From Catonia carolina (Eukaryota > Arthropoda > Insecta > Hemiptera > Achilidae): a stretch of DNA of 64,000 bases. Positions 25,901 to 54,008 of this stretch are shown here, piece by piece. The DNA is taken from NCBI GenBank assembly GCA_035578175.1, contig JAQMRL010000016.1:4510721-4574720 (forward strand), given 5' to 3'. The translations under genes and the position numbers were made by a program. The notes under the pieces were generated by a model. It ran no database searches. It was not told the DNA's origin and saw nothing but the letters and a program-made list of their open reading frames with translations. Each line of letters starts with the position of its first letter. Position 1 is the first letter of the stretch.

Positions 25901-28900
25901 AATCGCTCCACATCCCGATTTGGCTGTGATACCTCTAGAAACGAAGAAAGTACTTGAACGCCTCTGTAACTTACCTGAGATATTCATAGCTATCGTGTCT
26001 GGAAGAAGTGTGAAAAATGTCAAAGAAATGGTAATGTATTTATCTGTTTTTTTTAAAATTTGAATTTAGTTTATGAGGTGTAGCTATTAAATAACGAGAC
26101 TGACATTGTAAAAAAATTTATTTTATTTAATACATAATCACTTATTGTCACCTTCAATATACACTCCTTCTCTATCCCTACAATGCTCCATGCGAATTTT
26201 CCATTGTTGGAAACAGTGCTGGAAGTCATCTTCTGTCAGCTCCTTCAGAACACGTGCCGCTTTCTCTTACAGCTTCCACAGACTCAAATCTTGTCCCTTT
26301 TAATGCACTTTTCACCTTAGGGAACAGGTAGAAGATAATAACATGTGATGAAACAGTTTTTTACTTATAATCCGGAAATGAAGCGCCAATCCATGCACTG
26401 GAAGAGCCGAACTTCACAGAGAGCCAAAACAGCTCAAATGAGCAAGTTAAAATTTAAAGCAATGATGATTGTTTTTTTGATATCCATGGGATTGTGTACC
26501 TTCACTGGGTTCCTGAAGATTAAACAATTAATCAATATTACTACCTTGAGGTACTTTCTAAACTACGTCAAAGAATAAGGACAAAACTTCCCAAAATGTG
26601 GAAGGACAAATCATGGGTTCTCCACCAAGACAATGCGCCAGCTCATTCCGTGTTATCTGTCAAGAGGTTCCTAGCCAAGTACAGCATCTCATTGTTAGAA
26701 CATCCACCTTATTCACCAGATCTTGCACTGTGTGACTTCTACCTCTTCCCTAAGGTGAAATCTGCATTAAAGGGACAAGATTTGAGTCTGTGGAAGCTGT
26801 AAAAGAGAAAGCGGCACGTGTCCTGAAGGAACTGACAGACGATGACTTCTAGCACTATTTCCAACAATGGAAAATTTGCATGGAGCGTTGTAGGGATAGA
26901 GAAGGAGTGTATATTGAAGGTGACAATAAGTGATTATGTATTAAAGTCTGAGAAAATCAATGTCGATTAATTACTGTTGTCGATGGGGACCGACGACACA
27001 AGGCAAAACTTTGCTTGCGAAGTTGGTGGCCATGAAAAGGACGTTTAATTGGTTGGGGGTCTCTCGCGGAACTCAATCTTTACTGTGTTGTCATCGCAAG
27101 GGCTTTCTTCGGCTGACCGGTGCGGGAATATAGCGTCCACCACTGGTAGCTTCGACCACAGGTGGTGTGTCCAGTCTTGGCTGCGCTCTTCTTCCTCAGT
27201 CGGGAGCTGGATGGTAAGAGTGGCTTGCAGTCTAGGTCGGCTGCTTAAATCCCGTCTAGCGAGTCCACTGCTGACTGTTTGTCGTTAGCAGGTTCTGGTA
27301 CTGTCTGCAGCACTGATAATTGTGGAGCCATCGGTGACAACATAAAAAAATAAATACTAGATATTGAAGTTTGACTTTTGATTATAACAAAACAAAACAA
27401 AATTATTACTAAAAATATATTGTTTTTCAACAAAATAAAATATATTTTTTTCATTAGGTGGGTAAATAAATTTCTATTTGAAAACCAAGCTGTTGTCACC
27501 GGATGGCGACATTAAGTGGCAATCCTTATTAGTTTGGTGGCCCTGAAAAGGGCCGTTTAAGCGGTGGTCGTCGAGGAGCTGGGCGACACGGCGTGTCGTC
27601 GTCATCTTCTTCCCTCCCAGTAGTGCGTCGATGGCTGCTTCGTCGGGTCCGGTGGGCGTAAGGCTCGGTCGAGGGACCGCTGTGGGCATCGCTCGCGTCA
27701 GCAGGCAATGAGGGTCCGGTCGACGGCTTACGGTGACAGGACGGCGAGCCGAAGCATCATCTTCTCTCTTGTGGGGTCGTCGATTAGTCTTCGCTGGAGT
27801 CCGGCAGCCGTGTGCCGTGGTGGACGTCTTGTGGATGGTGTCTGGTTGGAAGTGAATCCCTCGGTGTCTTGATCGGAATTGAATCCCTCTGCTCAGTGCA
27901 GCGCTCTTTATATAGTCACCAAGAGCGCTGTGGTAGAGAGCGGCTACTGGCTTGGCCTTGATGACAAAGGCCTCTGTCGGTGGGGAGCCAAAAGGTTTGT
28001 CGCTATGCCGTCAAAGTGCCTACCACGCCGACAAAGGCCGGAAGATGTATTGAACTATTTACTGCATTAATTTACTAATGCAGTAAATTAATCATTTACT
28101 GCATTTACGGCAATGCAGTAAATGATTAATTAGAAGGGGTGGCGGTGACACCGTTTTATCCTATTTAAAACAACGGAATATGTGAGGATGAGCACTACTC
28201 ATTATAGTTGTCAGTTTATATATTTATGAACAGCCTTGAACATAATAACTGGAGGTAGTGAAGATTCATGATCGTATCGCCTGAAGAAAACTATACCTAA
28301 TTCTATGATTAGATTCTGTTCTTTTACATTTCGTCGTAATAACCACTGATTGCATTAAATAGTGATCACAATAACCAGTGCTTACTGTATTTATTATTTT
28401 TTTTGTAACCCCTAATATGTGTACGTTGCAATCTGTTCAATTCAGAACAATAAGCAACCCCATGACCCAATCAGATGAGGATAATATGTATGACGTGTAA
28501 ATGAGGTGTACTCTTGTACAGACTCAGGTCGACCATTCCTGAGAGAGTTTGGTTAATTGAACCCCAACCATCAAAGTACACCGGTAATAACTCTAGCATT
28601 CAAATCTGTATAAAAGTAACTACCTTTACTAGGATTTGATCCAGGAACCTTCGTCTCCGAAAATCAGCTGTTAAACAGCTGATTATGCCGACAACTTTAC
28701 CTCTAGACCAACCCGGTCGGTTGTATTTACTTTTAACGGTGTAATTCTTTTATAATCAGTTTTTTCTTTTAAATATAATATTATAAACTTTAAGCAAAGA
28801 TGGGGAAAAATCTGAGTAAAGTTCTTAGAATGAAAATATAAAATTAAAATTAATAAATTGAAACATGAAGTATTTGAAGCTGAAGATGACGATGACCATG

Positions 28901-31900
28901 ATGGAGATGATAATGATGCTGATTATGAGATGTCGATGATCAATTGTAGAATTAAAACAAAAAGATTAAATGATTAATAAAATCATAAATGTAAGTCCAA
29001 TGTTTTAAAACGTTTCGGTCTGTGAGCATGTTCGCTGTTGTCAAGGAGGTTAATTGCTAAAGAATTTTCATGCTAATTTTTGTAAAACCCACCGGGCTGG
29101 TCTAGAGGTAAAGTTGTCGCCAAAATCAGATGTTTAACAGCTGATTTTCTGAGACGAAAGTTCCTGGTTCAAATCCTAGTAAAGGTAGTTACTTTTATAC
29201 GGATTTGAATACTAGACAGTAGTTGCCGGTGTACTTTGATGGTTGGGGTTCATTAACCATACTCACTCAGGAATGGTCGACCTGGGTTTGTACAAGACTA
29301 CACCTCATTTACATGTCATACACATCATCCTCATCTAATTGGGTCATGGGGTTGCTTATTGTTCTGAATTGAACAGATTGCAATGTACACAAATTAGGGA
29401 TTTAAAAAAAAATTGTAAATGTGTTTCATGTTTCTTTTTTATGAAGGGCAGGTTTAGATTGTTTTATAATATTTCATTGGTTACATACCATAAGGATCCA
29501 GTGATTACTGTATTTAACTAGTTTTGTTTTTCGTTTTGTTCTACAATGATAGGTTGGTATTGATGAACTTACATATGCTGGAAATCATGGTTTGGAAATT
29601 GTTCAACCTGATGGTTCCCATTTCATGCATCCAATGCCTACTGAATTTGAAGATAAATGCAGTGCCTTATTACAAAAGCTTCAGGATGAAGTACGTATCC
29701 ATATTTTTAACCCTTTCCGTAAGCATCGATGAGATGTATCTCAGTTTGGTGCAATATAGATTAATAACTGTTTATCAATTTCTATTTTATATAATAATTA
29801 CACTAACCTTCTTTTTAAACTGCGTCACCTTTATTTTTATTCTTACTTACATGTGTTTCGGTAGATCCACCATCATCAGAGTAAATAAAATAATTGAAAC
29901 TAAAAAAATTTTTATCTCACTTATTTAAAATTTACAGAAGATGATACATCTTCAGTCATTTGTATAAAACTTATTTAAAATTAATTTATTTTATTTTATC
30001 CCTTCTCATATTTACTGTAGATAGCAGCAGCAGTCAATATCACTTCATAATTCCTAAATTTGACCTGTTCATTCAAAATGTCCTTCTTTTGCTCTTTTAA
30101 ATATTTATAAATATGGAACATCTCATATTTTTCAATTTTATTTTTATTTTCTATATTACATTGTTATATTATATTAAAATGTTCATCTATTTTACCAAAT
30201 TTATGTTTTTCTTCTTTTATATGATTGGTATAGTTAGATATAATGTAGTCACATTTCAGTGCTTTTTTATGTTCATTATTAAATACCTCACTTGAAAATT
30301 ACGACTAGTCATACCAATTGTTTATCAATTAATCAGAATGAAAACAGGGAATTTGAATTCTTATGTTATCCTTTTTGCATCTGTGCGTTTTTCATAATGT
30401 TTTACTGATAATAGTAAATTCCTTCTGCCCATAATAAACAGGTGGAGTGTCAGATTATTTGCACTCAATCTGTTCGTTGCAGGGCTAAAATAAATAGTTC
30501 TGTTTCTTATCACATGGTCAGCCAATTAAATGACTGAATCATTTAAGAACAGAAGAGGTAGAGGCGTTAAAGACACTAGTCAGAGTTACCTCCTCTGAAA
30601 GTAATGAATTTCACTATACAGCCAGACCCTGTGGTGAATGAAGTGAAGGTGTCATTTGCAGAGTGGAAAATATGTGCTTTCAGAGGGCCCGGCATGCTGA
30701 TAAGCATACTTTTCCACTCAGTGAGGAAGGCAATGGTAAACCACCTCACTCCTCGTTTTACTTAGTAAAACCTCTACGGGTTCAAACTAGCCTTTTGGCT
30801 GATGACCTAAACAAGTAAATTCCTTAAACTAGATAGTGTGTATCAACAGTTTACAATTTAAGTGCACATTACGCTGTAGTATACCTAATGTGTTCTCTTA
30901 AAACAGTTACCAATGTTCTTTTGATCATCTCTGTAACACTACTGTAAATAGTAGTTCGTGGCGTAGTGACTGGTGCGCTAGTCTACAAAGCGAAAGGTCC
31001 TGGGTTCGATTCCCGGCTTGGGTCTGGAAATTTTATCGCATTAAACTCACTGTTACACAATCTAGTAGTTGATAATGACAAAGCTGTAAAAAACTAAAAA
31101 AAAGAAATGCATTTGTTAATTCCTGATACTATCAATCACTGATACTTGGAAAAAAAATCTGTATAAATAACCAATTCTCTAGTATTCAAACTGCAGCGAA
31201 AATGCCGTAATTTTCAAGGGTAAAAGATATTAAAAAAGTCTCTTTCATGAGACTATGTGTCTCATGGCTGGTGGCAATTTTTTTTGAAAAAACCGTAAGC
31301 CTATAGAAAGGCTTACCTTTGACCTGTGGCCAAAACCATTATTAATTTCTGTATTTAGTCTTTAAGAGGAATCGAATGATACTGTTTTCGTTTCAAATTC
31401 CAATTTTGATGTCTAGGCTTCCGGTTGAAACCGCAACTTCAAACCCAATCCAGGCCTGCTAACTTTTTTTGTGTAGATTACAAATGTGAAAACCATTTTT
31501 TAAATGCTTTTATTTAACTTACTCTTGGATCCATCAAATCTTGCAACTTAAAATTTTAATACTTCTACCGTATCAATATGAATCAAACTTTGTACACTTG
31601 TTTATCTTCGATGACAATACGCTGTGGAGGTGTTTGTAAAAAAAAATTTAAAAAAAATTTTTTTAATTTTTTTAAGAAACGCTTTTATTTAACAATTACT
31701 TAAAAAAATTAACTAAAAAGAAAAAAATTAAAAAAATTTACAAAAAAAATTTACAAAAAAATCACAGAAAAAAAAATTACAAAAAAAAAAATTTAAGAAA
31801 CGCTATTATTTAACAATTAATCAAAAAAAATGAACTAAAAAGAAAAAAATAAAAAAATTTACAAAAAAAATCACAGAAATTACAGTTAAAAAAATAGACA

Positions 31901-34900
31901 ATTTTTTATGGTTAAATAAAAGCGTGGCGCATTAATATATATAATATTTATTGTAAAATATTCGTTGTATAAAAATGCGCCACGCTTTTATTTAACCATA
32001 AAAAATTGTCTGTATTTTTTTAACTGTAATTTCTGTGATTTTTTTTTTTGTAAATTTTTTTATTTTTTCCTTTTTAGTTCATTTTTTTTGATTAATTTTT
32101 AAATAATAGCGTTTCTTAAAAATGTTTTTTTTTTAACTTTTTTTTTTGATTTTTTTGTAATTTTTTTTTTGTATCTCTTGTAGTTTCTGCCAGATGGATA
32201 TCAGAAAATGATGGATGACAATTTAAAAAATTGCCACCCATATTAATACGTAGTACAGTTGGGTAATTTTGACTTTAAAAAATATTTCTATATTGCTGTC
32301 GTATTAAATAACTAATTTGGTGAATCTTAATCATGTACTGTAGTCTAATCGCTTGTTTAATTATGAATATGGTTTTCTGATAATGGAACGAGTACAAATG
32401 AATCACTTATCAAACGACGAAAGAAGTCGACACAACCAATTGGGCTTTCATGGTGAATATATTGTACACCATTACACATTTATACTTTGCAAATGGGTTT
32501 TCATAATTTTTTCAATTTTCGTTTTTATAATGTAAAATTAAAACCAATTTAAAAAAACTTCGCCGGCCGCATTGGCGAAGTTGGTAACGTGCTCGCCTCT
32601 CATCATGCGGTCTTGGGTTCGAATCCCAGTCAGGCACGGCATTAGTTCATACGTTACAAAAAATCATTTTATCATTCACCGTCTGCATTAGCAGTAATTG
32701 CAGAACAGTCGGACATTAGACAAAAAAAAAAATTAAAAAAACCGTTTTTTTTTTAATTTTCTAAAATTTTAAGTCTGAAAAAGCAAATGGTAATGGTTTA
32801 CTTTACCCCGATTTTAATTATGTATTACATTAGTGTGTGCTTTTACAGGTAGCGTTTTTGTAAATTTATGCAGAACTTAATGAAATTTTATTAAAATTTT
32901 TTTTACGTGAATTTTAGGTATGTAAAGATGGTGCGTGGGTTGAAAATAAAGGTGCCATTCTAACATTCCATTACCGTGAAACGCCCGTTGATGCTCGGCC
33001 CGCAATGATTGAAAAAGCGACGGCTTTAATTGAAAAGTATGGTTTCAAGGCGGGACAAGCACATTGCGCTCTCGAAGCGAGACCTCCTGTCCAGTGGAAC
33101 AAGGGACGTGCCTCACTGCACATTCTACGTACCACTTTTGGTCTTGACTGGAGCGAGCGAATAAAAATTATCTACGTGGGAGACGACATCACAGATGAGG
33201 ATGCTATGGAGGTATGACTTATTTCTTTTTTTCTTAGTTTTCATCTCATTAAAGCACTAAATTAACTACACACGCACAATATCAGTTGTATGAAATTTTA
33301 ACAAAAAGAATCGCATAGTAAATATAAGAGAAAGAGGGTATGACGTCCCTCTTTTTCAGGCCTGTCAAAACGTATGGTACATCATTTAAAAAAACTTATT
33401 GCCTATTACCCCAAATTGAATCGCAGACATTTTTACCTAAATTTTGTGTGCGCACAACTTATCAACTTTCGACTGCGGCACAAATGTCAAAACGATAACC
33501 ACATGAACACAACACAATGAGTACTACTTTGGAGGCAGCCTGTATTAGACTACGACGCTGTGGTGGGAGATCTACTTACTGCGCATGTGCGGCCCACATC
33601 CCACCGTAGTTGGTTACCATTGTACTTATTTGAACAATTTATCATTTTTGAAAAATACAAAAATTATAATAAATTTTTAATTCGTTCCCCATACGACTAG
33701 ATCATCGGCAAACAAAAAAATATTGTATGGTATTTCAAATACTGAAAAAATATTGTATGGTGACCCAGCGTTGATTAACGCAGGTACGCGCCTGCAAGAA
33801 ATCTAACCAGATACCTGTTTCTTTGTGTTTTAACTCTTATCTGTCTACGCCTCATCCTTTCAGCTATTAACTCAAACATTTTTACATGTGAAAGAATGTT
33901 TGTAGGACATTATGACATTCACCCTGTTACTCAGTTGTTATATTATCTCAGTCAGAGTCTTCTTTTCCGATATTAGTACTGAAAGTAATTTCAAGGAAAT
34001 TTTTTTGGAAAATAAATTGTTTCTTTAATTCCAGTAGTTATGTCTCAACATATCAGTTACGTCAGTTATGTCTCACTGCGTAAAGGTCATCTGATCCTAC
34101 ATGATACTTTATAAAATAACATTTTAAAAATTTCAAATTGTAAAGAATTTTTTTTTGTTTTTATTAAAAAAGCTGGCTAAAGGATGTCACAGTAATATTA
34201 TTTCAATTTAAATTAAGTTATTTTGTTATTTTAAATTTAAATAAATAAATAAATAAATTTATTAAAATTATTCATAAAACTACACTTGTTTTTTTATGAA
34301 AATATAAAAATTGATTTTATTATTTTGTAAAATTTTATTGTATATACAGAGTGATTCAATAAGATGGAAACAATTTCAATAAGCTGTATTTCCTGAACTA
34401 CATGTTATATTTTAATTCTGTAAATTACATTTGAAAGAGAAAGTTTTAAATTTTAATTTACATACATGAAAGTTTATAGATGTTCAATGTGTCCTCCTCC
34501 GGCTGCACGTACAACATCTAGACGGTAACTGAACTCATCCCAAACTCTCTGACGCATGTCTTGGGTCACTGAGTTGACTGCAGCTGTGATACGATTCCTT
34601 AGTTCATTCAAATTGGTGGGAAGAGGTGGTATGTAAACTGCACTTTTCACGAACCCCCACAAGAAAAAGTCACAGGGTGTGAGATCTGGAGACCTCGGTG
34701 GCCAAAACTGAAGTGCAGAGTCGTCATTCGCCATGCGACCTATCCATCGTTGACGTATGGATTCATTTAGGAAACGCCGAACATTGCGATGCCAATGGGG
34801 TGGAGCTCCGTCCTGCTGGAAAATGTAATCTCCTGAATCTTCATTCATTTGAGGAAATCCACCCCATTGGCATCGCAATGTTCGGCGTTTCCTAAATGAA

Positions 34901-35660
34901 TCCATACGTCAACGATGGATAGGTCGCATGGTGAATGAAGACTCTGCACTTCAGTTTTGGCCACCGAGGTCTCCAGATCTCACACCCTGTGACTTTTTCT
35001 TGTGGGGGTTCGTGAAAAGTGCAGTTTACATACCACCTCTTCCCACCAATTTGAATGAACTAAGGAATCGTATCACAGCTGCAGTCAACTCAGTGACCCA
35101 AGACATGCGTCAGAGAGTTTGGGATGAGTTCAGTTACCGTCTAGTTGTTGTTCGTGCAGCCGGAGGAGGACACATTGAACATCTATAAACTTTCATGTAT
35201 GTAAATTAAAATTTAAAGCTTTCTCTTTCAAATGTAATTTACAGAATTAAAATATAACATGTAGTTCAGGAAATACAGCTTATTGAAATTGTTTCCATCT
35301 TATTGAATCACTCTGTATTTTAAGATTATTATATTAAACTGTTATTAATACTACTAATATTAGTAAATGAAATTATGTACAGAAATAAAGAATAAAGAAC
35401 TTTCCTTCCTATTTAAAAATTGTGTTAAATTTCAGGCGCTGAAAGGTATGGCTGCAACATTCAGAGTTACTCAATCGAATATCATAAAAACGGCTGCGGC
35501 ACGTCGTATACCGGATACCGATGCAGTTTTAACTCTCCTGAAATGGGTCGAAAGACATTTCTCCAAACGTGTGCCGAGACCTTCAGAATCAATCCCAAGA
35601 ATACATCAGGGCATCAAAGTACAAATGTCAGTAGCAAAATCTACTAGTATATCAAAATAA
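4874..35660 (+). CDS. TPS: Trehalose-6-phosphate synthase/phosphatase, 5'-incomplete, 11 exons (gene span)
   Basis: Cytosolic enzyme that makes trehalose 6-phosphate from UDP-glucose and glucose 6-phosphate and, through its second domain, removes the phosphate; trehalose is the main insect blood sugar. Coding exons are 4874-4999, 10817-10963, 15013-15130, 17251-17570, 19822-20038, 22408-22564, 24397-24594, 25841-26030, 29553-29690, 32918-33211 and 35436-35660, together 2130 nt and 709 codons plus stop. Every junction keeps frame with GT/AG borders. In the partial protein the GT20 domain shows HDYHLM (Asp79), the Arg210/Lys215 pair in VDRLDYTKG and Asp309/Glu317 in [10 protein letters not shown], the same spacing as the substrate-binding residues of bacterial OtsA. 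The HAD phosphatase domain shows DYDGT (Asp441, Asp443), Ser481, Lys599 and GDDITDED (625-632). Insect TPS proteins are usually about 800-850 residues, so roughly 100 or more N-terminal residues are missing, presumably encoded upstream of the window. Introns are stuffed with transposons. Confidence 0.96.
5000..5540 (+). other. TPS intron 1, unassigned AT-rich start
   Basis: No ORF, repeat family or RNA signal seen. Confidence 0.5.
5545..6523 (+). pseudogene. Decayed LINE (non-LTR retrotransposon) pieces
   Basis: Two pieces of a LINE polyprotein in TPS intron 1. [13 protein letters not shown] at about 5567-5607 matches the usual FCYLGS-ITxDGRS region. From about 6120 a frame with several stops reads [24 protein letters not shown], then [12 protein letters not shown] and a basic tail ([30 protein letters not shown]) to 6523. 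The order agrees with the C-terminal region of many insect LINEs. Non-functional. Confidence 0.65.
6530..7460 (+). other. TPS intron 1, unassigned
   Basis: AT-rich, no recognised repeat and no coding signal. The small - strand frame 7328-7522 looks random. Confidence 0.5.
7463..8427. mobile_element. TIR element of unknown family, split by a SINE1
   Basis: Ends TAGTGCCCGCCACAAAAGAA and, in reverse, TAGTGCACGCCACGAAAGAA give about 28 bp of imperfect inverted repeat, with TA on each side. A SINE1 (7743-8120) splits it, with perfect AAAGATCACT duplications (7733-7742 and 8121-8130). Without the SINE the element is about 580 bp and non-coding. A relative occupies 13560-13975. Confidence 0.7.
7743..8120 (+). 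repeat. SINE1 copy with 10-bp target duplication
   Basis: Bounded by AAAGATCACT at 7733-7742 and 8121-8130. Splits the TIR element 7463-8427. Confidence 0.9.
8451..8850 (-). repeat. SINE1 copy with 10-bp target duplication
   Basis: Reverse orientation, bounded by ACATATGTAT at 8441-8450 and 8851-8860, just beyond the TIR element 7463-8427. Confidence 0.9.
8931..8998 (-). repeat. SINE1 5' fragment
   Basis: Reverse-strand match to the first ~65 bp of SINE1, 80 bp from a full copy. Confidence 0.65.
9250..9600 (-). repeat. Minisatellite-like, roughly 50-bp units
   Basis: On the - strand imperfect units repeat a core like ACCGCTGCCTCGAGGAGGA and GTGACCGAC/GTGGCG-like segments. The same cores recur at 46440-46600 on the + strand. 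GC-richer than surroundings, no ORF. Confidence 0.5.
10067..10779. repeat. Segment bounded by 29-bp direct repeats, holding a 192-bp tandem duplication
   Basis: TAGTTTAACCTTATTTGTCA plus GGAAAGCAT occurs at 10067-10095 and again at 10751-10779. Between them is A/C-rich, almost G-free sequence containing two near-identical 192-bp units (10161-10352 and 10353-10544), then a GC-rich perfect hairpin at 10701-10728. The second direct repeat ends 37 bp before TPS exon B. Confidence 0.85.
10701..10728. repeat. GC-rich perfect hairpin
   Basis: GATGCGAGGCAC, loop TTCC, then the exact complement: a 12-bp stem in AT-rich surroundings. It lies 89 bp upstream of TPS exon B. It could be a replication-type element end (Helitron 3' hairpin) but no clear CTRR-T end follows. 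Confidence 0.8.
10817..10963 (+). CDS. TPS: TPS exon B
   Basis: Acceptor TTCCAG before 10817 and donor GTAAGT at 10964; 49 codons, phase 0 at both ends. It carries [20 protein letters not shown], the HDYHLM active-site motif of GT20 (Asp79 of the partial protein). It continues from exon A as [12 protein letters not shown], matching the expected protein order. Confidence 0.96.
11043..11203 (+). repeat. SINE2 copy
   Basis: Complete head and tail as far as GGACGTTAAG, in TPS intron 2 shortly after exon B. Confidence 0.88.
11205..12240 (+). other. TPS intron 2, unassigned
   Basis: AT-rich sequence between a SINE2 and a deleted mariner; short frames only, none with family motifs. Confidence 0.5.
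12242..13172 (-). mobile_element. DD41D mariner, internally deleted copy, 931 bp
   Basis: Same terminal repeats as 2988-4347, with TA duplications at 12240-12241 and 13173-13174. It lies in TPS intron 2. Relative to the full copy it lacks 429 bp (full-copy bases about 3511-3940), with AAT shared at the two breakpoints; 1360 minus 429 equals the observed 931 bp. Confidence 0.9.
12349..12978 (-). pseudogene. DD41D transposase remnant with in-frame central deletion
   Basis: The reading frame stays open across the deletion: the DNA-binding N-terminus (through YDLQYHPYK) is joined directly to [11 protein letters not shown] of the C-terminus. The two first catalytic aspartates are gone; the third (LTPCDF) is present. 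The original ATG is mutated to AGG, so the open frame begins at an internal GTG codon. A product would contain the DNA-binding domain without catalysis, a form that could act as a repressor if expressed; that is inference only. Confidence 0.85.
13402..14930. mobile_element. TIR-flanked element, about 1.5 kb, unknown family
   Basis: AATAGCTATGTCTACACTCT at the left and AATAGCTATGTCCACACTCG, read in reverse, at the right. Between 13560 and 13975 it carries sequence homologous to the 7463-8427 element. No convincing ORF. The target duplication is unclear, so it may be two nested repeats rather than one element. Confidence 0.5.
15013..15130 (+). CDS. TPS: TPS exon C
   Basis: Acceptor ACAG at 15009-15012, donor GTAAGT at 15131; 118 nt, ends in phase 1. 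It encodes [30 protein letters not shown], the conserved GFFLHIPFP segment of the synthase domain. Confidence 0.96.
15308..15637 (+). repeat. SINE3 copy
   Basis: Full length in TPS intron 3, with a shortened hairpin and a duplicated TGGTTACCGG segment. Confidence 0.85.
15699..15850 (+). repeat. SINE1 5' fragment
   Basis: Matches the first ~150 bp of SINE1, as far as the GAGGTACAGGTGTAAAA segment. Confidence 0.75.
15986..16735. repeat. A/T-rich repeat with palindromic core, copy 1
   Basis: Starts with two tandem copies of a ~155-bp unit containing CTTACTCTTGGATCCATMAA and TCTTCGATGACAATA, followed by A-rich sequence and a palindrome. The palindrome arms are 16567-16619 and 16637-16689, with AAGCGTGGCGCA at the stem core and a 17-nt loop. 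A related, longer palindrome is at 31505-32170. Confidence 0.7.
16855..17075 (+). repeat. F4 repeat, internal fragment with (GT)n
   Basis: GAACAGAATATCTCAAGAAT and ATTTTCATCAAAATCGGTCA match the first third of F4. In TPS intron 3, ending about 175 bp before exon D. Confidence 0.75.
17251..17570 (+). CDS. TPS: TPS exon D
   Basis: Acceptor TTTTTTTCAG before 17251, donor GTATGT at 17571; 320 nt. It completes the split Gly codon of exon C and encodes [16 protein letters not shown] and [18 protein letters not shown]. Arg210 and Lys215 here correspond to the phosphate/UDP-binding pair of OtsA-type synthases. This is the longest TPS exon in the window. Confidence 0.97.
17608..18495 (+). repeat. F4 repeat, full-length copy
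   Basis: Both ends present; contains repeated statements of ACAACTTTTATTTMAAGCAT-like sequence. Begins 37 bp after TPS exon D. No ORF of note. Confidence 0.82.
18771..19050 (+). repeat. F4 repeat, 5' fragment
   Basis: Starts TTTTTACTTTCTCTTGCCTA and covers the first ~270 bp with an internal deletion. Confidence 0.75.
19525..19585. mobile_element. Pogo-like terminal fragment
   Basis: GTCCGGATAAACGAGGTTGC followed by ACTG and then TA resembles the right end of the element at 37032-40296 (both have GGGACC/GGTCCC then CCGGATAAAC/TTATTCG). The other end was not located. Confidence 0.4.
19596..19766 (-). repeat. SINE2 copy
   Basis: Reverse copy with diverged B box (GATCTTAGATTCAAACCCC); ends about 55 bp before TPS exon E. 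Confidence 0.85.
19822..20038 (+). CDS. TPS: TPS exon E
   Basis: Acceptor TTTCAG before 19822 and donor GTCAGT at 20039; 217 nt, phase 1 at its end. It encodes [20 protein letters not shown] through [11 protein letters not shown]; Asp309 is the likely UDP-glucose contact. The intron after it opens with a CT-rich run. Confidence 0.96.
20287..21276. mobile_element. TIR-flanked element, about 990 bp, unknown family
   Basis: Left end AATGAACAGCCAAAACAAAA and the reverse of the right end agree over about 55 bp with few mismatches (through AAAACTCACC and AGAGTATTAT). The interior contains no recognisable protein. Located in TPS intron 5. The flanks are AT repeats, so target duplication length is uncertain. 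Confidence 0.65.
21341..21585 (-). repeat. SINE3 copy, tRNA-like head missing
   Basis: Tail and B-box region only; ends at AGGATTTGAACCAGGAAACT. Confidence 0.8.
21613..21860 (+). mobile_element. Possible mariner 5'-end fragment
   Basis: TACGAGGGGACACCCAAAAG at 21615 resembles the terminal repeat of the 52219-53146 mariner, followed by AT-rich sequence with no recognisable transposase motif. No partner end was found. Weak. Confidence 0.3.
22070..22230 (+). pseudogene. Possible LINE tail fragment
   Basis: [16 protein letters not shown] then [15 protein letters not shown], similar in composition to the basic GKRxRGRPKxRW tail of LINE polyproteins, followed by a (GAT)n run at about 22225-22245. 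Short and weak. Confidence 0.4.
22408..22564 (+). CDS. TPS: TPS exon F
   Basis: Acceptor ATAAG before 22408 and donor GTAATT at 22565; 157 nt, phase 2 at its end. It encodes [12 protein letters not shown], then [14 protein letters not shown], the end of the catalytic core of GT20, including Glu317, eight residues after Asp309. The acceptor has a weak polypyrimidine tract (TTTTGTTTGTTTGGTATAAG) but the frame join is unambiguous. Confidence 0.95.
22681..23036 (+). repeat. Tandem repeat, TTTACAAACTTGTTTATCCG units
   Basis: At least eight imperfect units of TTTACAAACTTGTTTATCYG and AAACAT, with TCTGAGCTAA inserted in every second or third one. In TPS intron 6. The array frame is open by chance (22796-22981). 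Confidence 0.85.
23205..23840 (+). repeat. SINE1 copy interrupted by a MITE
   Basis: Halves 23205-23348 and 23586-23840, separated by the 23349-23585 insertion; tail (AAAC)n. The 3' tail abuts a SINE3. Confidence 0.85.
23349..23585. mobile_element. MITE-like insertion in SINE1, about 237 bp
   Basis: Interrupts a SINE1 copy between its GACACTA and GTCACAGTTAT segments, with TA at the joins. Both ends contain GACTGCAGATGA in inverted orientation (about 23368 and 23565), suggesting imperfect ~30-bp inverted repeats. Non-coding. Confidence 0.6.
23840..24295 (-). repeat. SINE3 copy split by SINE2
   Basis: Parts 23840-24022 and 24203-24295 around the SINE2 at 24023-24202. Ends about 100 bp before TPS exon G. 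Confidence 0.82.
24023..24202 (+). repeat. SINE2 copy inserted in SINE3
   Basis: Splits a SINE3; both joins carry a version of TTTTCTAGGATTT / TTTACTAGAATTT, a likely diverged target duplication. Confidence 0.88.
24397..24594 (+). CDS. TPS: TPS exon G
   Basis: Acceptor TTTTCAG before 24397, donor GTAAGA at 24595; 198 nt. It encodes [21 protein letters not shown] through DFDEYLS, the C-terminal helices of the synthase domain and the linker to the phosphatase domain. Confidence 0.95.
24693..25665 (+). repeat. F4 repeat, full copy plus start of a second
   Basis: 24693-25614 is complete; at 25615 a second ACTTTCTCGTGCCGTATATG start follows directly in tandem and breaks off at about 25665. In TPS intron 7. 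Confidence 0.8.
25841..26030 (+). CDS. TPS: TPS exon H (start of HAD phosphatase domain)
   Basis: Acceptor AAACAG before 25841, donor GTAATG at 26031; 190 nt. It encodes [20 protein letters not shown] motif I with the nucleophile Asp441 and acid Asp443, and IVSGRS, HAD motif II (Ser481). Intact motif residues argue for a phosphatase-competent domain. Confidence 0.97.
26073..26940. mobile_element. DD34D mariner fold-back with inverted 3' ends, right TIR lost
   Basis: Located in TPS intron 8. The left part (26073-26334) is the transposase 3' end on the - strand plus a terminal repeat starting AGGTGTAGCTATTAAATAA. From 26335 the + strand reads the transposase from the first catalytic region (TCDET) to the C-terminus, including HQDNAPAH and [12 protein letters not shown] (34 residues between Asp and Asp). 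The C-terminal ~200 bp is therefore present twice in inverted orientation (26133-26334 versus 26736-26938) around a ~400-bp loop. The outer right terminal repeat is absent after about 26940. Several stops and frameshifts make it dead. Confidence 0.82.
27028..27043 (-). promoter_or_regulatory. Degraded histone-type stem-loop
   Basis: Read on the - strand: CGTCCTTTTCATGGCC, with TTAAA before and ACCAAC after. Same context as 27539-27554, but two stem pairs are broken. A purine-rich stretch (CGCAAGCAAAG) follows, where a U7-binding element would be expected. Confidence 0.4.
27539..27554 (-). promoter_or_regulatory. Histone-type mRNA 3' stem-loop
   Basis: Read on the - strand: GGCCCTTTTCAGGGCC, flanked by AAAC before and ACCAAA after. 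This fits the metazoan replication-dependent histone 3' element (6-bp stem, TTTC loop, ACC tail). Confidence 0.7.
27906..27914 (-). promoter_or_regulatory. TATA box upstream of stem-loop unit
   Basis: TATATAAAG on the - strand, about 350 nt before the stem-loop at 27554. Its link to a real transcript is inferred only from position. Confidence 0.4.
28053..28135. repeat. Hairpin cluster built on TTTACTGCAT
   Basis: ATTAATCATTTACTGCATT and its complement flank ACGGC (about 28086-28130), preceded by a smaller palindrome CTGCATTAATTTACTAATGCAG at about 28061. At the edge of the GC-rich island. Confidence 0.75.
28409..28722 (-). repeat. SINE3 copy, full length
   Basis: Includes tail, B box, hairpin and A box (CTCTAGACCAACCCGG). 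Confidence 0.88.
29087..29408 (+). repeat. SINE3 copy, full length
   Basis: Opens CACCGGGCTGGTCTAGAGG and ends GGGATTTAAAAAAAA, 145 bp before TPS exon I. Confidence 0.88.
29553..29690 (+). CDS. TPS: TPS exon I
   Basis: Acceptor ATAG before 29553 and donor GTACGT at 29691; 46 codons, phase 0 at both ends. It encodes [21 protein letters not shown], the conserved YAGNHGLEI segment of the trehalose-phosphatase cap region. Confidence 0.96.
29900..30412 (+). other. TPS intron 9, unassigned AT-rich
   Basis: Very T-rich; nothing recognised. A GATGATACATCTTC-type motif beside a SINE1 may be repeat-derived. Confidence 0.45.
30425..30813 (+). repeat. SINE1 copy with 12-bp target duplication
   Basis: AGTAAATTCCTT at 30413-30424 and 30814-30825. 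Confidence 0.9.
30955..31105 (+). repeat. SINE4 copy with tRNA-like head
   Basis: A-box-like GGCGTAGTGACTGG and B box GGTTCGATTCC, then GGGTCTGGAAATTTT and an A-rich end. Not a functional tRNA: no CCA-compatible acceptor pairing was evident. Confidence 0.75.
31225..32245. repeat. F5 repeat interrupted by A/T-rich palindromic element
   Basis: The F5 repeat (also at 1769-1908 and 39462-39592) is read as far as about 31504, then resumes at 32171 with TCTCTTGTAGTTTCTG. The intervening 31505-32170 is the A/T-rich element of 15986-16735. Here its palindrome is about 140 bp per arm (about 31794-31933 and 31971-32118), again with AAGCGTGGCGCA at its core. Confidence 0.65.
32562..32735 (+). repeat. 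SINE2 copy
   Basis: Complete head and tail with poly(A), about 180 bp upstream of TPS exon J. Confidence 0.88.
32918..33211 (+). CDS. TPS: TPS exon J
   Basis: Acceptor TTTTAG before 32918, donor GTATGA at 33212; 98 codons, phase 0. It encodes [27 protein letters not shown] (Lys599, HAD motif III) and [13 protein letters not shown] (HAD motif IV, Mg-binding acids 626-630). Confidence 0.97.
33212..34344 (+). other. TPS intron 10, unassigned
   Basis: No recognised repeat in this interval apart from a short duplicated ATATTGTATGGT at about 33720-33760. No coding signal. Confidence 0.5.
34347..35315. mobile_element. Mariner-type fold-back element, 458-bp arms, 969 bp
   Basis: Located in TPS intron 10. 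Arms 34347-34804 and 34858-35315 are reverse complements without indels and with only a few mismatches, around a 53-bp loop. Both outer ends read CAGAGTGATTCAATAAGATG and are bounded by TA (34345-34346 and 35316-35317). Each arm encodes the same transposase C-terminus ([18 protein letters not shown] to the stop), on the - strand in the left arm and the + strand in the right. The - strand ORF at 34905-34474 also keeps [10 protein letters not shown], with 46 residues between the two Asp. The 5' half of the parent element is missing. Confidence 0.92.
35436..35660 (+). CDS. TPS: TPS exon K (terminal coding exon)
   Basis: Acceptor TTTCAG before 35436; 74 codons then TAA at 35658-35660. It encodes [15 protein letters not shown] and a variable tail ending in STSISK. 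The acceptor lies about 120 bp downstream of the fold-back mariner at 34347-35315, which sits in the preceding intron. Confidence 0.95.
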   Translation, partial: ALKGMAATFRVTQSNIIKTAAARRIPDTDAVLTLLKWVERHFSKRVPRPSESIPRIHQGIKVQMSVAKSTSISK

Positions 35661-40927: not shown

Positions 40928-41400
40928 CTAGGTGTGGCTATTAAATAATGTGACTGATGTTGTAAAAAATTTTATTTTAATTTTATACATAATCGCTTAT
41001 TGTCACCTTCAATATACACTCCTTCTCTATCCCTACAACGCTACCTGCGAATTTTCCATTGTTAGAAACAGTGCTGGAAGTCATCTTTGTTCAGCTCCTT
41101 CAGGACATGTGCCGCTTTCTCTTTTACAGCTTCCACAGACTCAAATCTTGTCCCTTTTAATGCAGATTTCACCTTAGGGAACAGGTAGAAGTCACATGGT
41201 GCAAGATCTGGTGAATAAGTTAGATGTTCCAACACTGAGATGCTGTAATTGGCTAGGAACCTCTTGACAGATAATGTGAAATGTCTTGATGGAGAACCTA
41301 TGATTTGTCCTTCTACATTTCAGGGTGTTCTTTCCTTACTCTTTGACCTAGTTTTGAAAGTACCTTTGACCTTCAGGAACCCAGTGAAGGCCTTTATAGC
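40928..41400 (-). mobile_element. DD34D mariner fragment
   Basis: Same family as 26073 and 48155. It opens with AGGTGTGGCTATTAAATAAT and continues through sequence complementary to the transposase C-terminus and HQD/SPDLAPCDFYLFP region up to about 41400. Stops and small deletions interrupt every frame, and the 5' part is missing. Confidence 0.75.
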
Positions 41401-45881: not shown

Positions 45882-46134
45882 CTTACCAATGTTTATAACG
45901 CTTTCGTGTATCTTGTACATATCTTCAGTAAATTAAAATTCATTAAAATTTTTCTACGTCAAAATTTAAAACTTCCTACTTGTACTATGGTAGATAAGGA
46001 AGGTAGATAAGGTATTCCTTATCTACCATCGTACAAGTAGGAAGTTTTAAATTTTGACGTAGAAAAATTTTAATGAATTTTAATTTACTGAAGATGTGTA
46101 CAAGATACACGAAAGCGCTATAAACATTGGTAAG
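45882..46134. repeat. Palindrome with 120-bp arms, 13-nt loop
   Basis: Arms 45882-46001 and 46015-46134 are reverse complements without indels, with only a few mismatches (for example CTATGG against CCATCG). Loop GGTAGATAAGGTA. No flanking duplication and no similarity to other repeats in the window was seen. A transcript would form a long hairpin. Confidence 0.9.
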
Positions 46135-46405: not shown

Positions 46406-46439
46406 AAAAAACCAGATGCTTGGGGAAGCCTTGGCCGCT

Positions 46440-47049: not shown

Positions 47050-47692
47050 CCGTGCGTTCGGAAAGTCGCTGTGCACTGGAATTGTGACTATGGATTTATG
47101 AAAATATGTATAAAGAAATGACTAAGCATTTTGGAAAAAAATTTATTCAATACCTTAATTACATTGTTAAACCGTGATTACATTGTTTATAGAAGGTGTT
47201 CGAAATGACCTCCATTGGCATCAATACAGCATTGCACTCGTTTCATTTTGTTTGCAAACACCTTTCGCAACTGAAGAACAGTGATTCCTTGAATGTATGC
47301 CGTTATTGCGGCTTTAAGTTCGTCAATCGTGTGTGGTCTGTTCCGATACACAGTTTGTTTCGCCGCACCCCATAAAAAGAAATCGGGGGGAGTCAGATCA
47401 GGAGATCTTGCAGGCCACAAATTCTTTGAAATTATTCGTTCACCAAACACGTTGCATAACGTTTTATACAGTTGCGAAAGGTGTTTGCAAACAAAATGAA
47501 ACGAGTGCAATGCTGTATTGATGCCAATGGAGGTCATTTCGAACACCTTCTATAAACAATGTAATCACGGTTTAACAATGTAATTAAGGTATTGAATAAA
47601 TTTTTTTCCAAAATGCTTAGTCATTTCTTTATACATATTTTCATAAATCCATAGTCACAATTCCAGTGCACAGCGACTTTCTGAACGCACGG
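47050..47692. mobile_element. Mariner-type fold-back element, 643 bp, copy 1
   Basis: Arms of 224 bp (47050-47273 and 47469-47692) are reverse complements with one visible mismatch, around a 195-bp loop. Ends begin CCGTGCGTTCGGAAAGTCGC and are flanked by TA at 47048-47049 and 47693-47694. Both arms hold the transposase C-terminus (VFANKMKRVQCC to HFEHLL). The - strand ORF 47546-47187 spans arm and loop and contains LWPARSPDLTPPDFFLWGAA with a third-Asp motif. The same 643 bp recurs inverted at 53366-54008. Confidence 0.92.
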
Positions 47693-47774
47693 TACAATAT
47701 TAAATAGTACCGCTGTTTAAAATCCTACATAGGATGTTTGATAAAATAAAATAAATTACTAAGAATAATATTAT

Positions 47775-48137: not shown

Positions 48138-48154
48138 AACAAGAATAATATATG

Positions 48155-49018
48155 AGGTGTGATCAAATAAGTAGACCTAAGTTGTAAAAAATTGTATTTT
48201 AATTTTATACATAATCACTTATTGTCACCTTCAATATACACTCCTTCTCTATCCCTATAACGCTCCATGCGAATTTTCCATAGTTGGAAACAGTGCTGGA
48301 AGTCATCTTCTGTCAGCTCCTTCAGGACATGTGCCGCTTTCTCTTTTACAGCTTCCACAGACTCAAATCTTGTCCCTTTTAATGCAGATTTTACCTTAGG
48401 GAACAGGTAGAAGTCATGGTGCAAGATCTGGTGAATAAGGTGGATGTTCTAACACTGAGATGCTGTACTTGGCTAGGAACCTCTTGACAGATAACGCGGA
48501 ATGAGCTGGTGCATTGTCTTGGTGGAGAATCCATGATTTGTCCTTCCACATTTTGGGGCGTTTCGTCCTTATTCTTTGACGTAGTTTAGAAAGTACCTCA
48601 AGGTAGTAATATTGATTAATTGTTTGACCTTCAGGAACCCAGTGAAGGTACACAATCCCATAGATATAAAAAAAAAACAATCATCATTGGTTTAAATTTT
48701 GACTTGCTCATTCGATCTTTATTGGCTCTCCAGTGCATGTATTGGCGCTTCGTTTCCGGATCATAAGTAAAAAAGCACGTTTCATCAGATGTTATTATCG
48801 TTTCCAAACAATTTGGGTCATTTTCAATCGCGTACAAAGTGTTAGTACAAACATTTTTGCGAGCTTCATTTCAAACATTTTTGAGCGGCATGTGTCCTGA
48901 AGGAGCTAACAGAAGATGACTTCCAGCACTGTTTCCAACGATGGAAAATTTGCATGGAGCGTTGTAGGGATAGAGAAGGAGTGTATATTGAAGGTGACAA
49001 TGTCAGTCTCATTTTTTA
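48155..49018. mobile_element. DD34D mariner fold-back, longer copy
   Basis: The - strand carries about two thirds of a transposase in three overlapping frames (48837-48631, 48680-48414, 48424-48215): IITSDETCFF (first Asp), [10 protein letters not shown] (second) and [10 protein letters not shown] (third), then EGVYIEGDN. At about 48879 the sequence switches to a second copy of the C-terminal coding end on the + strand, finishing with GTCAGTCTCATTTTTTAATA and GCCACACCT, the same family end. The inverted shared part is about 115 bp. The N-terminal DNA-binding region is missing. Confidence 0.8.
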
Positions 49019-49063
49019 ATAGCCACACCTTGTATACAAAATTATTAGAGTTATTTACGTAAT

Positions 49064-49366: not shown

Positions 49367-49842
49367 AAATTATTATTAGTAACATTGCGATATTTATAAG
49401 AAAAGTAAAAAATTTCACATTGGATTAAAATTCAATGATGAATTTTATTATTTTGTGTACTGTATTAAAATGTGGTCTTTAGATTAAGAATGTGTTACTT
49501 TTTGAGGTGTAAATAAAACACCTGAGGGAAGGCAACATTAAAGCAAATTTCATGCCAGTAGTTCTGGTGATCGTTTTACCTTAGCTGGTACCAGAGGCAC
49601 AGCCCTCTTACCTCTTCCATTACAGTGCAGATACGAAGATGGTCATCTATTTCAGTTTCTTTTAAACCACCTTGCATTACTTGTTGATGTTAAGACTTCA
49701 TTTCAAAATAATTATCGAATACAAATGATTGTATTTTAAAAGTTGTTTTCAAAATGCGATAAAAAGTTTATACACCAACATGCAAATAGTGATAAATTAT
49801 TACAGAAATCTGCAATAGATTCCTGTATTTGTCATGAATCTA

Positions 49843-50700
49843 CGAGGTGTGATTGGAAAGTTTAAAGAATGGGCTTGTAATGAAACAATGGTGGTACTTA
49901 CATGCTACTGTGATGCATCTCCTTCAAAATAGTCCCCTTCTGTCTGAACACACCGACTCCAACGGTGTTTCCACTTTTGGAAACATTCCTGGAAATTTTT
50001 TTCCTGGAGTAAGTTAAGAACGCTCTCCGTATTTGCCTGGTTGTCTTCAATCGAGTCAAATCGCTTCCCTTTCAGTGAAAATTTCAGTTTAGGAAACAGT
50101 TAGAAGTCCACCGGGTCCAAATCAGGGGAATATGGCGGTTGTGGAAGCACAGGAATGTTGAATTTGATCAAAAATTCAACGATGGAGAAGGCACGATGAG
50201 CCGGAGCATTGTCATGGTGTAGAATCCAACTCCTGTCTTTCCACAATGCAGGCCTTTTCTTCGCACCTTTTCACGCAAACGCTGAAGGTCACATTTGTAG
50301 TATTCCTGGTTAATTGTCTGTCCTCCAGGCGTAAATTCATGCTGCACAATACCGGTAGAATCGAAAAAAATCACCAACATTGTCTTCACCTTCAACCGAC
50401 TTTGCCGTGCTTTTTTCGGTCGTGATGAACTTGGAGTCTTCCACTGCGAAGACTGCAAAAGCTGTTTTTAATAGTTCGTAAGTCTCAGAAGCTGTCCATT
50501 TCATGTCCAATTTCGTGCAGCCAGAATCCGGCAACAAGCACTAACAGACCCGCACTCAACCAGCTGCCACAGCGAACTGAATAAAGGAAATGCAGTTTCC
50601 TGTCAGAGGGCGTTCAAGGACAAGGCAATGACTCACTCCCCCAAACAAATAAGCAGTAGCAATAGCAAATTCATTCTTAAAACTTTCCAATCACACCTCG
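49843..50700 (-). mobile_element. Mariner (DD34D-like), internally deleted, 858 bp
   Basis: Terminal repeats CGAGGTGTGATTGGAAAGTT and complement, with TA at 49841-49842 and 50701-50702. The - strand holds part of the transposase middle (VKTMLVIFFDSTGIVQHEF), a frameshift before the HHDNAPAH motif, and a stop at DPVDF*LFPKLKF. Residues around the first catalytic Asp are deleted. Decayed, but its ends look intact. Confidence 0.85.
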
Positions 50701-50702
50701 TA

Positions 50703-51345: not shown

Positions 51346-53190
51346 TAAAAAAAAAAAATCTGGTGTGAAACACTCACACAACTTTCTCTTGCCAATGCAA
51401 ATAATTAACAATAAACCTAACATTATTAATAAAATATTAGAAATAAACAAAAAACTAACCTCAAAAACATAACCTTATTTTAATCATGAGTGAATGACGC
51501 AAAATGAAAATCGAACTCAGTTTGGATTAAAACAATGGAAAATCACTTTCATGCTAAACTAGGCTCTGTAGAGAAAAATTCTCTAAATAAAAGTTGTAGA
51601 TCTCTTAATTTTCTATAAATTTTATTATATACACTTTTGTCGTAAAATGAGTACTAAAGCCGAAATATTAAAAAAATCGATTTTTCACACGTTTTCGTGA
51701 GAAAAAAACAGAAAATCGCTAATTACCGTTAAACTAAGCGTTATACAAAAAAATATTTGAAATAAAAGTGGTAGGTTTTAAAATTGTCTACAACTTTTAT
51801 TATATACATTTTTGCGCTGAAGTGCATATTAAAGCCGTAATCTTAAAAAAACAAAGTTTTTACGTGAAACACCCTTACCAAGAATTTCAGCCAAGATGGC
51901 ACCTACGCTATCTTGTAGAAAATAAAAAATTTAGTAAACCAGGCGATTTTTAAAAGAATCGTAGGACCAGTTTTTGAGAAAATCGCAAAAAAGTGAAAAA
52001 TTATACGAATAAACTACTACTTTTTGATGAAAATGTTCGTGTCGGGTCCGGTAGTGGTATGTAACTTAAGTTTCAAGTTCGTACGATGTTCCATTCTTGA
52101 GATATTTTGTATACACACACAGACCAATCGCTAAAAACATGTTTTTTGGGTTGAGGGGGTCTGTTTACATGTATATCTGGTGTTGAGTGTATTTGTTAAA
52201 ATCTACATGAAAACAATACGAGGGGGTACCCAAAAGAAACCGGAATTATTTTTTAAAACTATTTATTTTTAATTTTTTTACAAAAGAACCTTATCCCCTT
52301 CAAAATACTCTCCATTACAACTAATACATTTGTCCCACCGGTGCTTCCACTGTTCAAAACATTTTTTGTACTCCTCTTCAGTGATGGCTGCCAGCTCATC
52401 CGTCGTTTTTTTCTTGACATCATCAACGTTGTTAAATCGGAGACCTTTCATGCCCCTTTTCATGCGTGGGAACAAGAAAAAATCACACGGAGCCAGATCG
52501 GGTGAGTACGGTGCGTGTGGTAGCAAAACCATGCCGTTTTTCGCCAAAAACTGGGTAACCGAGATTGCCGTGTGTGCAGGCGCGTTGTCGTGGTGGAAAA
52601 ACCAGTCCCCTGTCTGCCACAAATTAGGTCTTTTACGACGAATGCTGTTTCGTAGTCTTCTTAACACTTAAAGATAAAAAGTCAATGGTCTGTCGTCGGT
52701 CTGTTCGTACAATTTCTTTCACTTTCACAACATTTTCGTCTGTTCGGGAAGTCGACGGTCGTCCAGAACGAGGTTTGTTCTCAATCGACATGTCGCCATT
52801 TTTAAAGCGCAAAAACCACTCGTACACTTGGGTTTTTCCAATAGCGTCGTCTTTGTAAGCTGTGTTCAACATTACAACTGTTTCCGCGGCGTTTTTACCG
52901 AGCAAGAAGCAAAATTTCACAGCCGCACGTTGTTCATTAAAACTTGCCATCATGAAAAACGACACGAGCACAAAACAGCACTAGCGAGAACAATCACTGC
53001 ACGAGAACAGAACAAGCTAGATCAACGAACAAAATGGCATTGAACTGGCAATGAGTAGCGCTACAAGCAGCCTAGTGGCGGGAATTTGTACTGCACAAGC
53101 TCCGCCCACAGCAGAGCTATTCCGGTTACTTTTGGGTACCCCCTCGTATGTTCCTTCCTATATATTCATATAGGCAAGAGAAAGTAAAAG
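51346..53190 (-). repeat. F4 repeat, reverse copy split by a mariner
   Basis: Parts 51346-52218 and 53147-53190 around the mariner 52219-53146; both F4 ends are present. Confidence 0.82.
52219..53146 (-). mobile_element. Mariner DD34D, internally deleted, 928 bp
   Basis: Ends CGAGGGGGTACCCAAAAGAA and complement (nearly perfect 28-bp repeats), TA at 52217-52218 and 53147-53148. Inserted into an F4 repeat. The - strand ORF 52971-52633 is the helix-turn-helix N-terminus (FNEQRAAVKFCFLLGK); ORF 52667-52278 is the C-terminus with FFHHDNAPAHT and SPDLAPCDFFLFPR, 34 residues between the Asp. The centre with the first Asp is lost and the two halves are in different frames. Confidence 0.9.
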
Positions 53191-53365
53191 TTAGTTTCAA
53201 AAGATATTGTGTACTATGATGATGGTGGATCCACCGAAACACATGTAAGTAACAGAAAGTAGAAATCAAGGCAACTTAACAAGGTCAGTGAAATTTATTG
53301 TATAAATTTATTTATTATATAAAATAAAATTAATTCTAGTACAGTCCATTCGAAATACCATGATA

Positions 53366-54008
53366 CCGTGCGTTCGGAAAGTCGCTGTGCACTGGAATTG
53401 TGACTATGGATTTATGAAAATATGTATAAAGAAATGACTAAGCATTTTGGAAAAAAATTTATTCAATACCTTAATTACATTGTTAAACCGTGATTACATT
53501 GTTTATAGAAGGTGTTCGAAATGACCTCCATTGGCATCAATACAGCATTGCACTCGTTTCATTTTGTTTGCAAACACCTTTCGCAACTGTATAAAACGTT
53601 ATGCAACGTGTTTGGTGAACGAATAATTTCAAAGAATTTGTGGCCTGCAAGATCTCCTGATCTGACTCCCCCCGATTTCTTTTTATGGGGTGCGGCGAAA
53701 CAAACTGTGTATCGGAACAGACCACACACGATTGACGAACTTAAAGCCGCAATAACGGCATACATTCAAGGAATCACTGTTCTTCAGTTGCGAAAGGTGT
53801 TTGCAAACAAAATGAAACGAGTGCAATGCTGTATTGATGCCAATGGAGGTCATTTCGAACACCTTCTATAAACAATGTAATCACGGTTTAACAATGTAAT
53901 TAAGGTATTGAATAAATTTTTTTCCAAAATGCTTAGTCATTTCTTTATACATATTTTCATAAATCCATAGTCACAATTCCAGTGCACAGCGACTTTCCGA
54001 ACGCACGG
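53366..54008. mobile_element. Mariner-type fold-back element, 643 bp, copy 2
   Basis: Same length and, by eye, the same sequence as 47050-47692 read in the other direction; its 119-residue ORF (53512-53871, + strand) is identical to the one at 47546-47187. TA at 53364-53365 and 54009-54010. The arms (53366-53589 and 53785-54008) look perfect here, without the mismatch seen in copy 1. Confidence 0.92.

What the first reader, a model, noticed from the sequence alone, without database searches (positions are those of the whole stretch)
26073..54008. Recurrent 3'-3' architecture in unrelated mariner families
Five elements (26073, 34347, 47050, 48155, 53366) from at least three families by terminal repeat share one rearrangement: duplicated, inverted 3' ends and no 5' end. 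None of the opposite (5'-5') kind was seen. For Mos1, artificial elements with two 3' terminal repeats have been reported to transpose better than wild type because the 3' end binds transposase more strongly (recalled from the mariner literature). Inference: an active mechanism keeps making 3'-3' fold-backs in this genome and they are favoured as efficient non-autonomous passengers, a distinct route to MITE formation.
Basis: partly seen in the sequence, partly recalled or inferred. Interest (0 to 1): 0.85.

Follow-up and report, generated by a model that had tools for sequence, protein, structure and literature searches.

The report
Same-end (3'-3') mariner-type transposon derivatives
Several short, defective mariner-type jumping genes in this animal genome carry the same (3') end twice, back to back; such derivatives are already described in insects, and here they arose three or four separate times for a reason that remains open.

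Summary
The elements are real. Four of the five carry two inverted copies of a transposon 3' end (transposase C-terminus plus terminal repeat) between TA dinucleotides; the fifth (26074) has lost its outer right end. They are not five origins: 47050 and 53366 are one element in two places (40 identical genome copies scored), and every other junction was also found elsewhere, giving four junctions in three families. Only family A is mariner in the strict (DD34D) sense. No 5'-5' form was recognised in the window, in 200 kb of randomly drawn genome, or among 40 scored matches to the 5' end of family A; with four founders the bias is not significant by itself. The proposed cause, a stronger 3' terminal repeat, is weakened but not excluded: in the four families with both ends readable the two repeats differ at 0-2 positions. 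The architecture is published (Rpmar17, Rpmar49 of Rhodnius), while seven rearranged Drosophila MITE sublineages are all 5'-5', so 3' ends are not generally favoured. Most likely these are abortive-gap-repair derivatives amplified in trans. One unexpected point: plain-deletion and 3'-3' derivatives of several families share a narrow length class (927-944 bp, 5 of 8 founders).

The parts
26074..26945 (+). A1: family A (mariner DD34D) 3'-3' derivative; short left arm (L029 1396-1128), long right arm (L029 723-1338), right terminus missing
48153..49032 (-). A2: family A 3'-3' derivative with another junction (L029 639|1203); long left arm, short right arm with a ~38-bp deletion between ATTGT repeats (by eye); TA flanks
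40930..41390 (-). A3: single 3' fragment of family A, not palindromic
34347..35315 (.). B: 3'-3' element, arms ~460 nt, 43-nt loop, TA flanks; second copy in L014, 98.7% identical
47050..47692 (-). C1: 3'-3' element, 643 bp, TA flanks, same founder as C2
53366..54008 (+). C2: 3'-3' element, 643 bp, TA flanks; one of 40 identical scored genome copies
2990..4345 (+). D1: full-length element of a fourth family (terminal repeat resembles the rosa DD41D repeat printed in PMC5490172), parent form for D2 and D3
12244..13170 (-). D2: internal-deletion derivative, 927 bp
54464..55394 (-). D3: internal-deletion derivative with other breakpoints, 931 bp
52219..53146 (-). E: internal-deletion derivative of another mariner family, 928 bp
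49843..50700 (-). G: shortened element of another mariner family, 858 bp, not palindromic; 5' part without transposase match

Best explanation
The elements are non-autonomous, MITE-like derivatives of three families of the IS630-Tc1-mariner superfamily. In each founder the 5' part was replaced by an inverted copy of the 3' part; the founder was then multiplied by transposase supplied in trans (shown: the same junction at different sites, TA flanks; inferred: the transposase source). Inferred formation: after excision the gap was repaired from a sister or homologous copy; the strand copying from the 5' side slipped from the 5' terminal repeat to the near-identical 3' repeat, copied inwards from there, and the two tracts were joined early (abortive gap repair). 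This makes the 3'-3' form an internal deletion plus one template switch. A true 3' advantage is neither needed nor excluded.
For: Same junction at different sites: C, B and L014, A1/L012/L015, A2/L031. TA flanks. Terminal repeats nearly identical at the two ends in the four families where both were read (A, D, E, G), which permits the switch. Arms of the young elements nearly identical (C2 0 differences in 224 nt, B 5 in 458), as expected of one template. One 3'-3' founder (A2 type, 936 bp) and four plain deletions share a length class. Filee et al. describe the same derivative and invoke abortive gap repair, though between two neighbouring copies (PMC4678618).
Against: The template switch was not observed, and parent 5' ends of B and C are unknown. 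The A1 junction shares only about 1 bp (by eye). Arms of A1, A2 and L003 differ by about 5-6% and those of L012 by 15%, which also fits two parental copies; A2's left terminus differs from its right and L003 has two kinds of 3' subterminal sequence. Nothing here explains why all four founders are 3'-3' rather than 5'-5'.
Confidence: 0.55

Rival explanations
1. Selection for the 3' end: transposase binds or cuts the 3' end better, so among all rearrangements only 3'-3' forms multiply.
For: No 5'-5' form recognised in window or sample, 0 of 40 scored matches to the A 5' end. For Mos1 two right ends work best in vitro, and Mboumar-9 shows an end preference with only 2 of 32 bp different (PMC4505599, abstract and passages).
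Against: 5' and 3' repeats are the same or differ at 1-2 positions in A, D, E, G. Drosophila rearranged MITEs are all 5'-5'; Mboumar-9 prefers the left end. Only four founders.
Confidence: 0.25
2. Neighbouring-copy origin: two copies lay near each other in opposite orientation and a deletion removed both 5' halves (Filee et al. propose deletion between two neighbouring, in their words head-to-tail, copies).
For: Published for Rpmar49 and Rpmar17. Arms of A1, A2 and L003 are 5-6% and of L012 15% diverged, and two kinds of 3' subterminal sequence occur in L003.
Against: C and B arms are (nearly) identical, which would need two near-identical parents in one place; needs a nested insertion each time.
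Confidence: 0.2
3. A1 and A2 are one founder followed by deletions around the centre, as proposed for Rpmar17, so there are only three founder events.
For: L003 carries a centre-rearranged form in which pieces near the A1 junction are duplicated and others deleted.
Against: Needs two extra deletions, since A1 has the longer short arm and A2 the longer long arm.
Confidence: 0.35
4. Chance and small numbers: 3'-3' and 5'-5' arise and spread equally and four 3'-3' founders is luck.
For: One-sided probability 1/16 for four founders; B and C were not tested for 5'-5' forms.
Against: 0 of 40 for the A 5' end, though this is one family and the top-scored copies only.
Confidence: 0.3

Closest known systems
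Rpmar17 and Rpmar49 of Rhodnius prolixus (Filee et al. 2015, PMC4678618)
   Same: 5' part replaced by inverted 3' part, long terminal repeats, lengths 922 and 970 bp; Rpmar17 is a drosophila-subfamily mariner, and the repeats of that subfamily (Rpmar83 most of all) resemble family A by eye
   Different: Most Rpmar17 copies have their own breakpoints, while here each junction is shared by several copies; B is not a DD34D mariner and C could not be tested
Rearranged Dromar7/11/28/36 MITEs of Drosophila (PMC4161770)
   Same: Same kind of rearrangement, unusually long terminal repeats, MITE-like amplification
   Different: Opposite polarity: 3' part replaced by 5' part in all seven sublineages
Two-3'-end Mos1 constructs (pBC-3Tet3, PMC2642840, passages; Auge-Gouillou 2001, only its title seen in reference lists)
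   Same: Two 3' ends bounding a mobile element
   Different: Artificial; Mos1 ends differ at 4 of 28 bp, here at 0-2 of 27-32
Internal-deletion MITEs of mariner and rosa elements in aphids (PMC5490172, section 11 and passages)
   Same: Non-autonomous, trans-mobilised; irritans ones 908-1165 bp
   Different: Described as internal deletions; rosa ones are much shorter (349-578 bp)

Membership tests
mariner (DD34D) | Mariner-type transposase, 34 residues between second and third catalytic D (family A) | tested here: met
   PF01359 and PF13358 above cut-off, Mos1 match E 1.9e-24; 34 residues counted by hand (one residue unresolved in A2)
mariner (DD34D) | 34 residues between second and third catalytic D (family B) | tested here: not met
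   46 residues counted by hand; only a below-cut-off PF13358 match; no PDB match
mariner (DD34D) | 34 residues between second and third catalytic D (family C) | not testable with these tools
   The 3'-3' element begins after the second D; relative P0271 has 38 (counted by hand); no Pfam or PDB match
IS630-Tc1-mariner superfamily | TA target duplication and terminal inverted repeats | tested here: met
   TA directly at both ends of C1, C2, D3, E, G, L003, L029, L031 and of B and A2 (read); D1, D2 and the L009 copy have TA at the 3' end but TAAC at the 5' end
3'-3' derivative of the Rpmar17/49 kind | Both ends derive from the 3' part of the parent | tested here: met
   A2/L031 by comparison with full-length L029; B and C by transposase C-terminus on both strands
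3'-3' derivative of the Rpmar17/49 kind | Both 3' termini present in the A1 junction type | tested here: inconclusive
   3 of 3 copies (A1, L012, L015) lack the outer end of the long arm; L003, a rearranged relative, has both
3'-3' derivative of the Rpmar17/49 kind | Parent 5' end known and absent, families B and C | not tested
   The search for longer B was sent 14 times and never answered; that for C was sent once and not answered
MITE | Non-autonomous, short, many similar copies | tested here: met
   C: 40 of 40 scored matches identical over the query; for B only 2 copies were seen

The most novel reading that the evidence does not exclude
One length filter acts on the longer non-autonomous mariner-type derivatives, whatever their architecture: internal deletions and 3'-3' forms of unrelated families converge on about 935 bp with varying breakpoints, so that 3'-3' formation is a by-product of gap repair and the final length, not the identity of the ends, decides what multiplies.
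Probability: 0.2. Interest if true: 0.55.

Novelty: new member of a known kind. Interest (0 to 1): 0.35.

Why it matters
It adds another genome in which 3'-3' derivatives recur, extends them to a family outside strict mariner (B; C untested), and weakens the attractive idea that a stronger 3' terminal repeat drives them. The shared length class of two architectures makes the question 'what limits the size of mobile mariner derivatives?' testable with simple constructs.

Tried and rejected
Rejected: five independent origins (C1 = C2). Rejected: the right end of A2 being a 5' terminus. BLAST matched its last 35 bp slightly better to the L029 5' repeat (91.4%) than to the 3' repeat (88.6%), but the letters next to it fit a 3' end with a microhomology deletion, and L031 with the same junction has the full 3' arm. 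Rejected: other window palindromes (45882-46134, 31742-32169, 16547-16708) as transposase-bearing 5'-5' elements: no match. Of 16 inverted pairs listed in the sample, 2 are family A or B 3'-3' elements (L012, L014); the other 14 overlap no match and were not classified (L024 4660-5262 has ITm-like ends but no clear transposase match; the ends of L013 and L027 resemble the common ~390-bp repeat). A 5'-5' element without coding sequence would be missed. L015 8668-9184 was found by similarity: its remaining arms do not overlap, so it is recognised by its junction only. L031 was fetched because its hit began at residue 131; L030 and L032 were fetched as possible 5'-5' forms and are ordinary.

Length test: eight founders (D2 927, D3 931, L009 944, E 928, A2 type 936, B 970, C 643, G 858). 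Left out: A1 type (end unseen; about 933 predicted), L003 (468, secondary), A3, the degraded remains at 43.6-45.2 kb, and near full-length elements. An earlier run used wrong ends for E and G and slightly different D and A2 lengths; it had 4 of 8 within 18 bp and gave weaker figures (7e-4, 0.018, 0.11). The 18-bp width was chosen after seeing the data; three of the eight share one parent family. B is 969 bp by its exact ends; D2 and L009 are 2 bp longer if the AC after TA belongs to them. Against a length filter: Filee et al. argue that the Rpmar17 size homogeneity is not due to selection for transposition, since most copies have their own breakpoints; [quoted passage not shown] C (643 bp) is the most uniform element here.

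Searches without use: IMG/VR scans for B and C (6 and 13 pattern matches, none confirmed); PDB for B and C (none). The positive control, the same search with the A 3' end, did not complete; that this tool lists opposite-strand partners is shown only, where both arms lie inside the query. The K2P line for L015 aligned 9 nt only and is void; the offset mismatch counts printed are void too and were replaced.

Full report
Setting. The window lies in a large eukaryotic genome held without a name (1.47 Gb in 142 contigs; window = C54:4510721-4574720). Named relatives of the transposases come from arthropods. The genome is full of mariner remains: a search with a 354-aa relative had 109,354 candidates in the first look, of which 115 were scored.

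What is there. Inverted arms were found at all cited places. Orientation was set by transposase homology: both arms of each element match the C-terminal part of transposases on opposite strands. Family A (26074 and 48153) is a mariner: PF01359, Mos1 as best solved relative, 80% identity to an unnamed relative (P0001) and to a Trichonephila 'mariner Mos1 transposase' (P0002). B (34347) and C (47050, 53366) belong to other branches: B has 46 residues between the second and third catalytic D by my count, and its named relatives are mostly in termites and cockroaches, with a spider; one listed relative each of B and C carries PF16087 (P0176, P0325). So 'unrelated mariner families' is right about being unrelated, loose about mariner.

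How many origins. C1 and C2 differ at one base of 647 and share the junction; 40 of 40 scored matches (584 candidates, C2 among them) were complete and identical, and the 8 fetched lie at different sites with TA on both sides. B has a second copy in 200 kb of random sequence, 98.7% identical over its length. A full-length family A copy (L029, 69-1391, TA flanks) gives coordinates: A1 joins 1128|723, shared by L015 exactly and by L012 within 4 bases; A2 joins 639|1203, shared by L031 with the same junction sequence. Twelve of 116 protein matches begin at residues 127-134, where the A2 long arm begins (132), which suggests that this type is common; only one of them (L031) was read. L003 holds a shorter element with both 3' ends and a rearranged centre. 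Hence four junctions in three families, or three events if A1 and A2 are centre-deleted forms of one founder.

The opposite kind. None was recognised in the window. In the 20 random 10-kb stretches 16 inverted pairs of at least 60 nt were listed: two are 3'-3' elements (L012, L014), 14 overlap no transposase match, and no place has N-terminal matches on both strands. A search with the A 5' region (L029:99-420) gave 40 matches from 40 scored of 385 candidates, and no two lie near each other on opposite strands: 0 of 40. Limits: only the best-scored copies of one family; the matching 3' control did not complete; B and C 5' ends are unknown; D was searched only with the whole element, where all 40 scored of 329 candidates were full length. 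By founder the count is 4 to 0, probability 1/16 one-sided.

Why 3'-3'? For Mos1 and Mboumar-9 the repeats differ and one end is preferred, the right one in Mos1 but the left one in Mboumar-9 (PMC4505599, abstract and passages). Here the two repeats are nearly the same: A 2 differences in 32 (and 0 in 32 between the L029 5' end and a 3'-type end of L003), D 0 in 27, E 1 in 28, G 1 in 29. That weakens the reason but does not exclude it, since Mboumar-9 differs at only 2 of 32 and still shows a 2-3 fold effect, and since subterminal sequence was not tested. Published cases point both ways: Rpmar17 and Rpmar49 in Rhodnius are 3'-3' (PMC4678618, section 13 read), the seven rearranged Drosophila sublineages are 5'-5' (PMC4161770, section 6 read). 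So the architecture is known and its polarity differs between hosts or families.

Likely formation. Near-identical terminal repeats at both ends offer a place for a repairing strand to change template; the result of abortive gap repair would be an internal deletion if no change occurs and a 3'-3' (or 5'-5') element if it does. This is inference. It agrees with near-identical arms in the young elements. Filee et al. prefer deletion between two neighbouring copies; the more diverged arms of A1, A2 and L003 (5-6%) and of L012 (15%) would fit that as well.

A by-product: length. Eight derivative founders measured here are 927, 931, 944 (D, three different deletions), 928 (E), 936 (A2 type), 970 (B; 969 by exact ends), 643 (C) and 858 (G) bp. 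Five lie within 18 bp: four plain deletions and one 3'-3' form. Eight lengths drawn at random give such a cluster with frequency 1.25e-5 (range 100-1300), 8e-4 (600-1000) or 0.011 (800-1000); the width was chosen afterwards and three share a parent, so this is suggestive only. Filee et al. [quoted passage not shown] Against a strict rule: aphid rosa MITEs are 349-578 bp, and the two most successful Drosophila MITEs are the shortest.

Literature searched for prior descriptions: (listings). In those listings I saw no paper that joins the length of internal-deletion and 3'-3' forms into one statement, but I looked only into the papers named here, mostly in passages (also PMC4168063 and PMC8277862, passages, on template switching in gap repair).

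Noticed in passing
window 2990-4345: Full-length element with a terminal repeat like rosa DD41D and an open frame of about 361 aa in which the DLTPCNF motif has N where relatives have the third catalytic D; the 40 scored genome copies are full length at 98-100% identity, so the family was active recently.
   Followed up: partly
genome: A mariner family about 72-73% identical to P0001 has 365-aa frames without stops at many places: a likely live transposase source, not tested for mobilising family A.
   Followed up: no
window 2990, 13170, L009 5992: Three of four D copies have TAAC rather than TA before the 5' repeat, the fourth (54464-55394) has TA directly.
   Followed up: no
window 10161-10345 and 10353-10537: Exact 185-bp direct duplication 7 bp apart.
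   Followed up: no
window 125-511 and about a dozen further places: A ~390-bp repeat at roughly 70-95% identity occurs throughout the window and sometimes as inverted pairs (ends of L013 and L027 pairs look alike).
   Followed up: no
window 45882-46134: Palindrome of 253 nt, 94% self-complementary, without transposase match.
   Followed up: no
L003 2147-2153: A C element sits within 10 bp of a complete 468-bp family A 3'-3' element.
   Followed up: partly
window 25860-26030 and 35434-35640: Exon-like stretches next to A1 and B that read like a trehalose-phosphatase/synthase (label recalled from the reading, no search run), so both elements may lie in introns.
   Followed up: no
L024 4660-5262: Fold-back element with ITm-like ends and arms 82% alike, family unknown.
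   Followed up: partly
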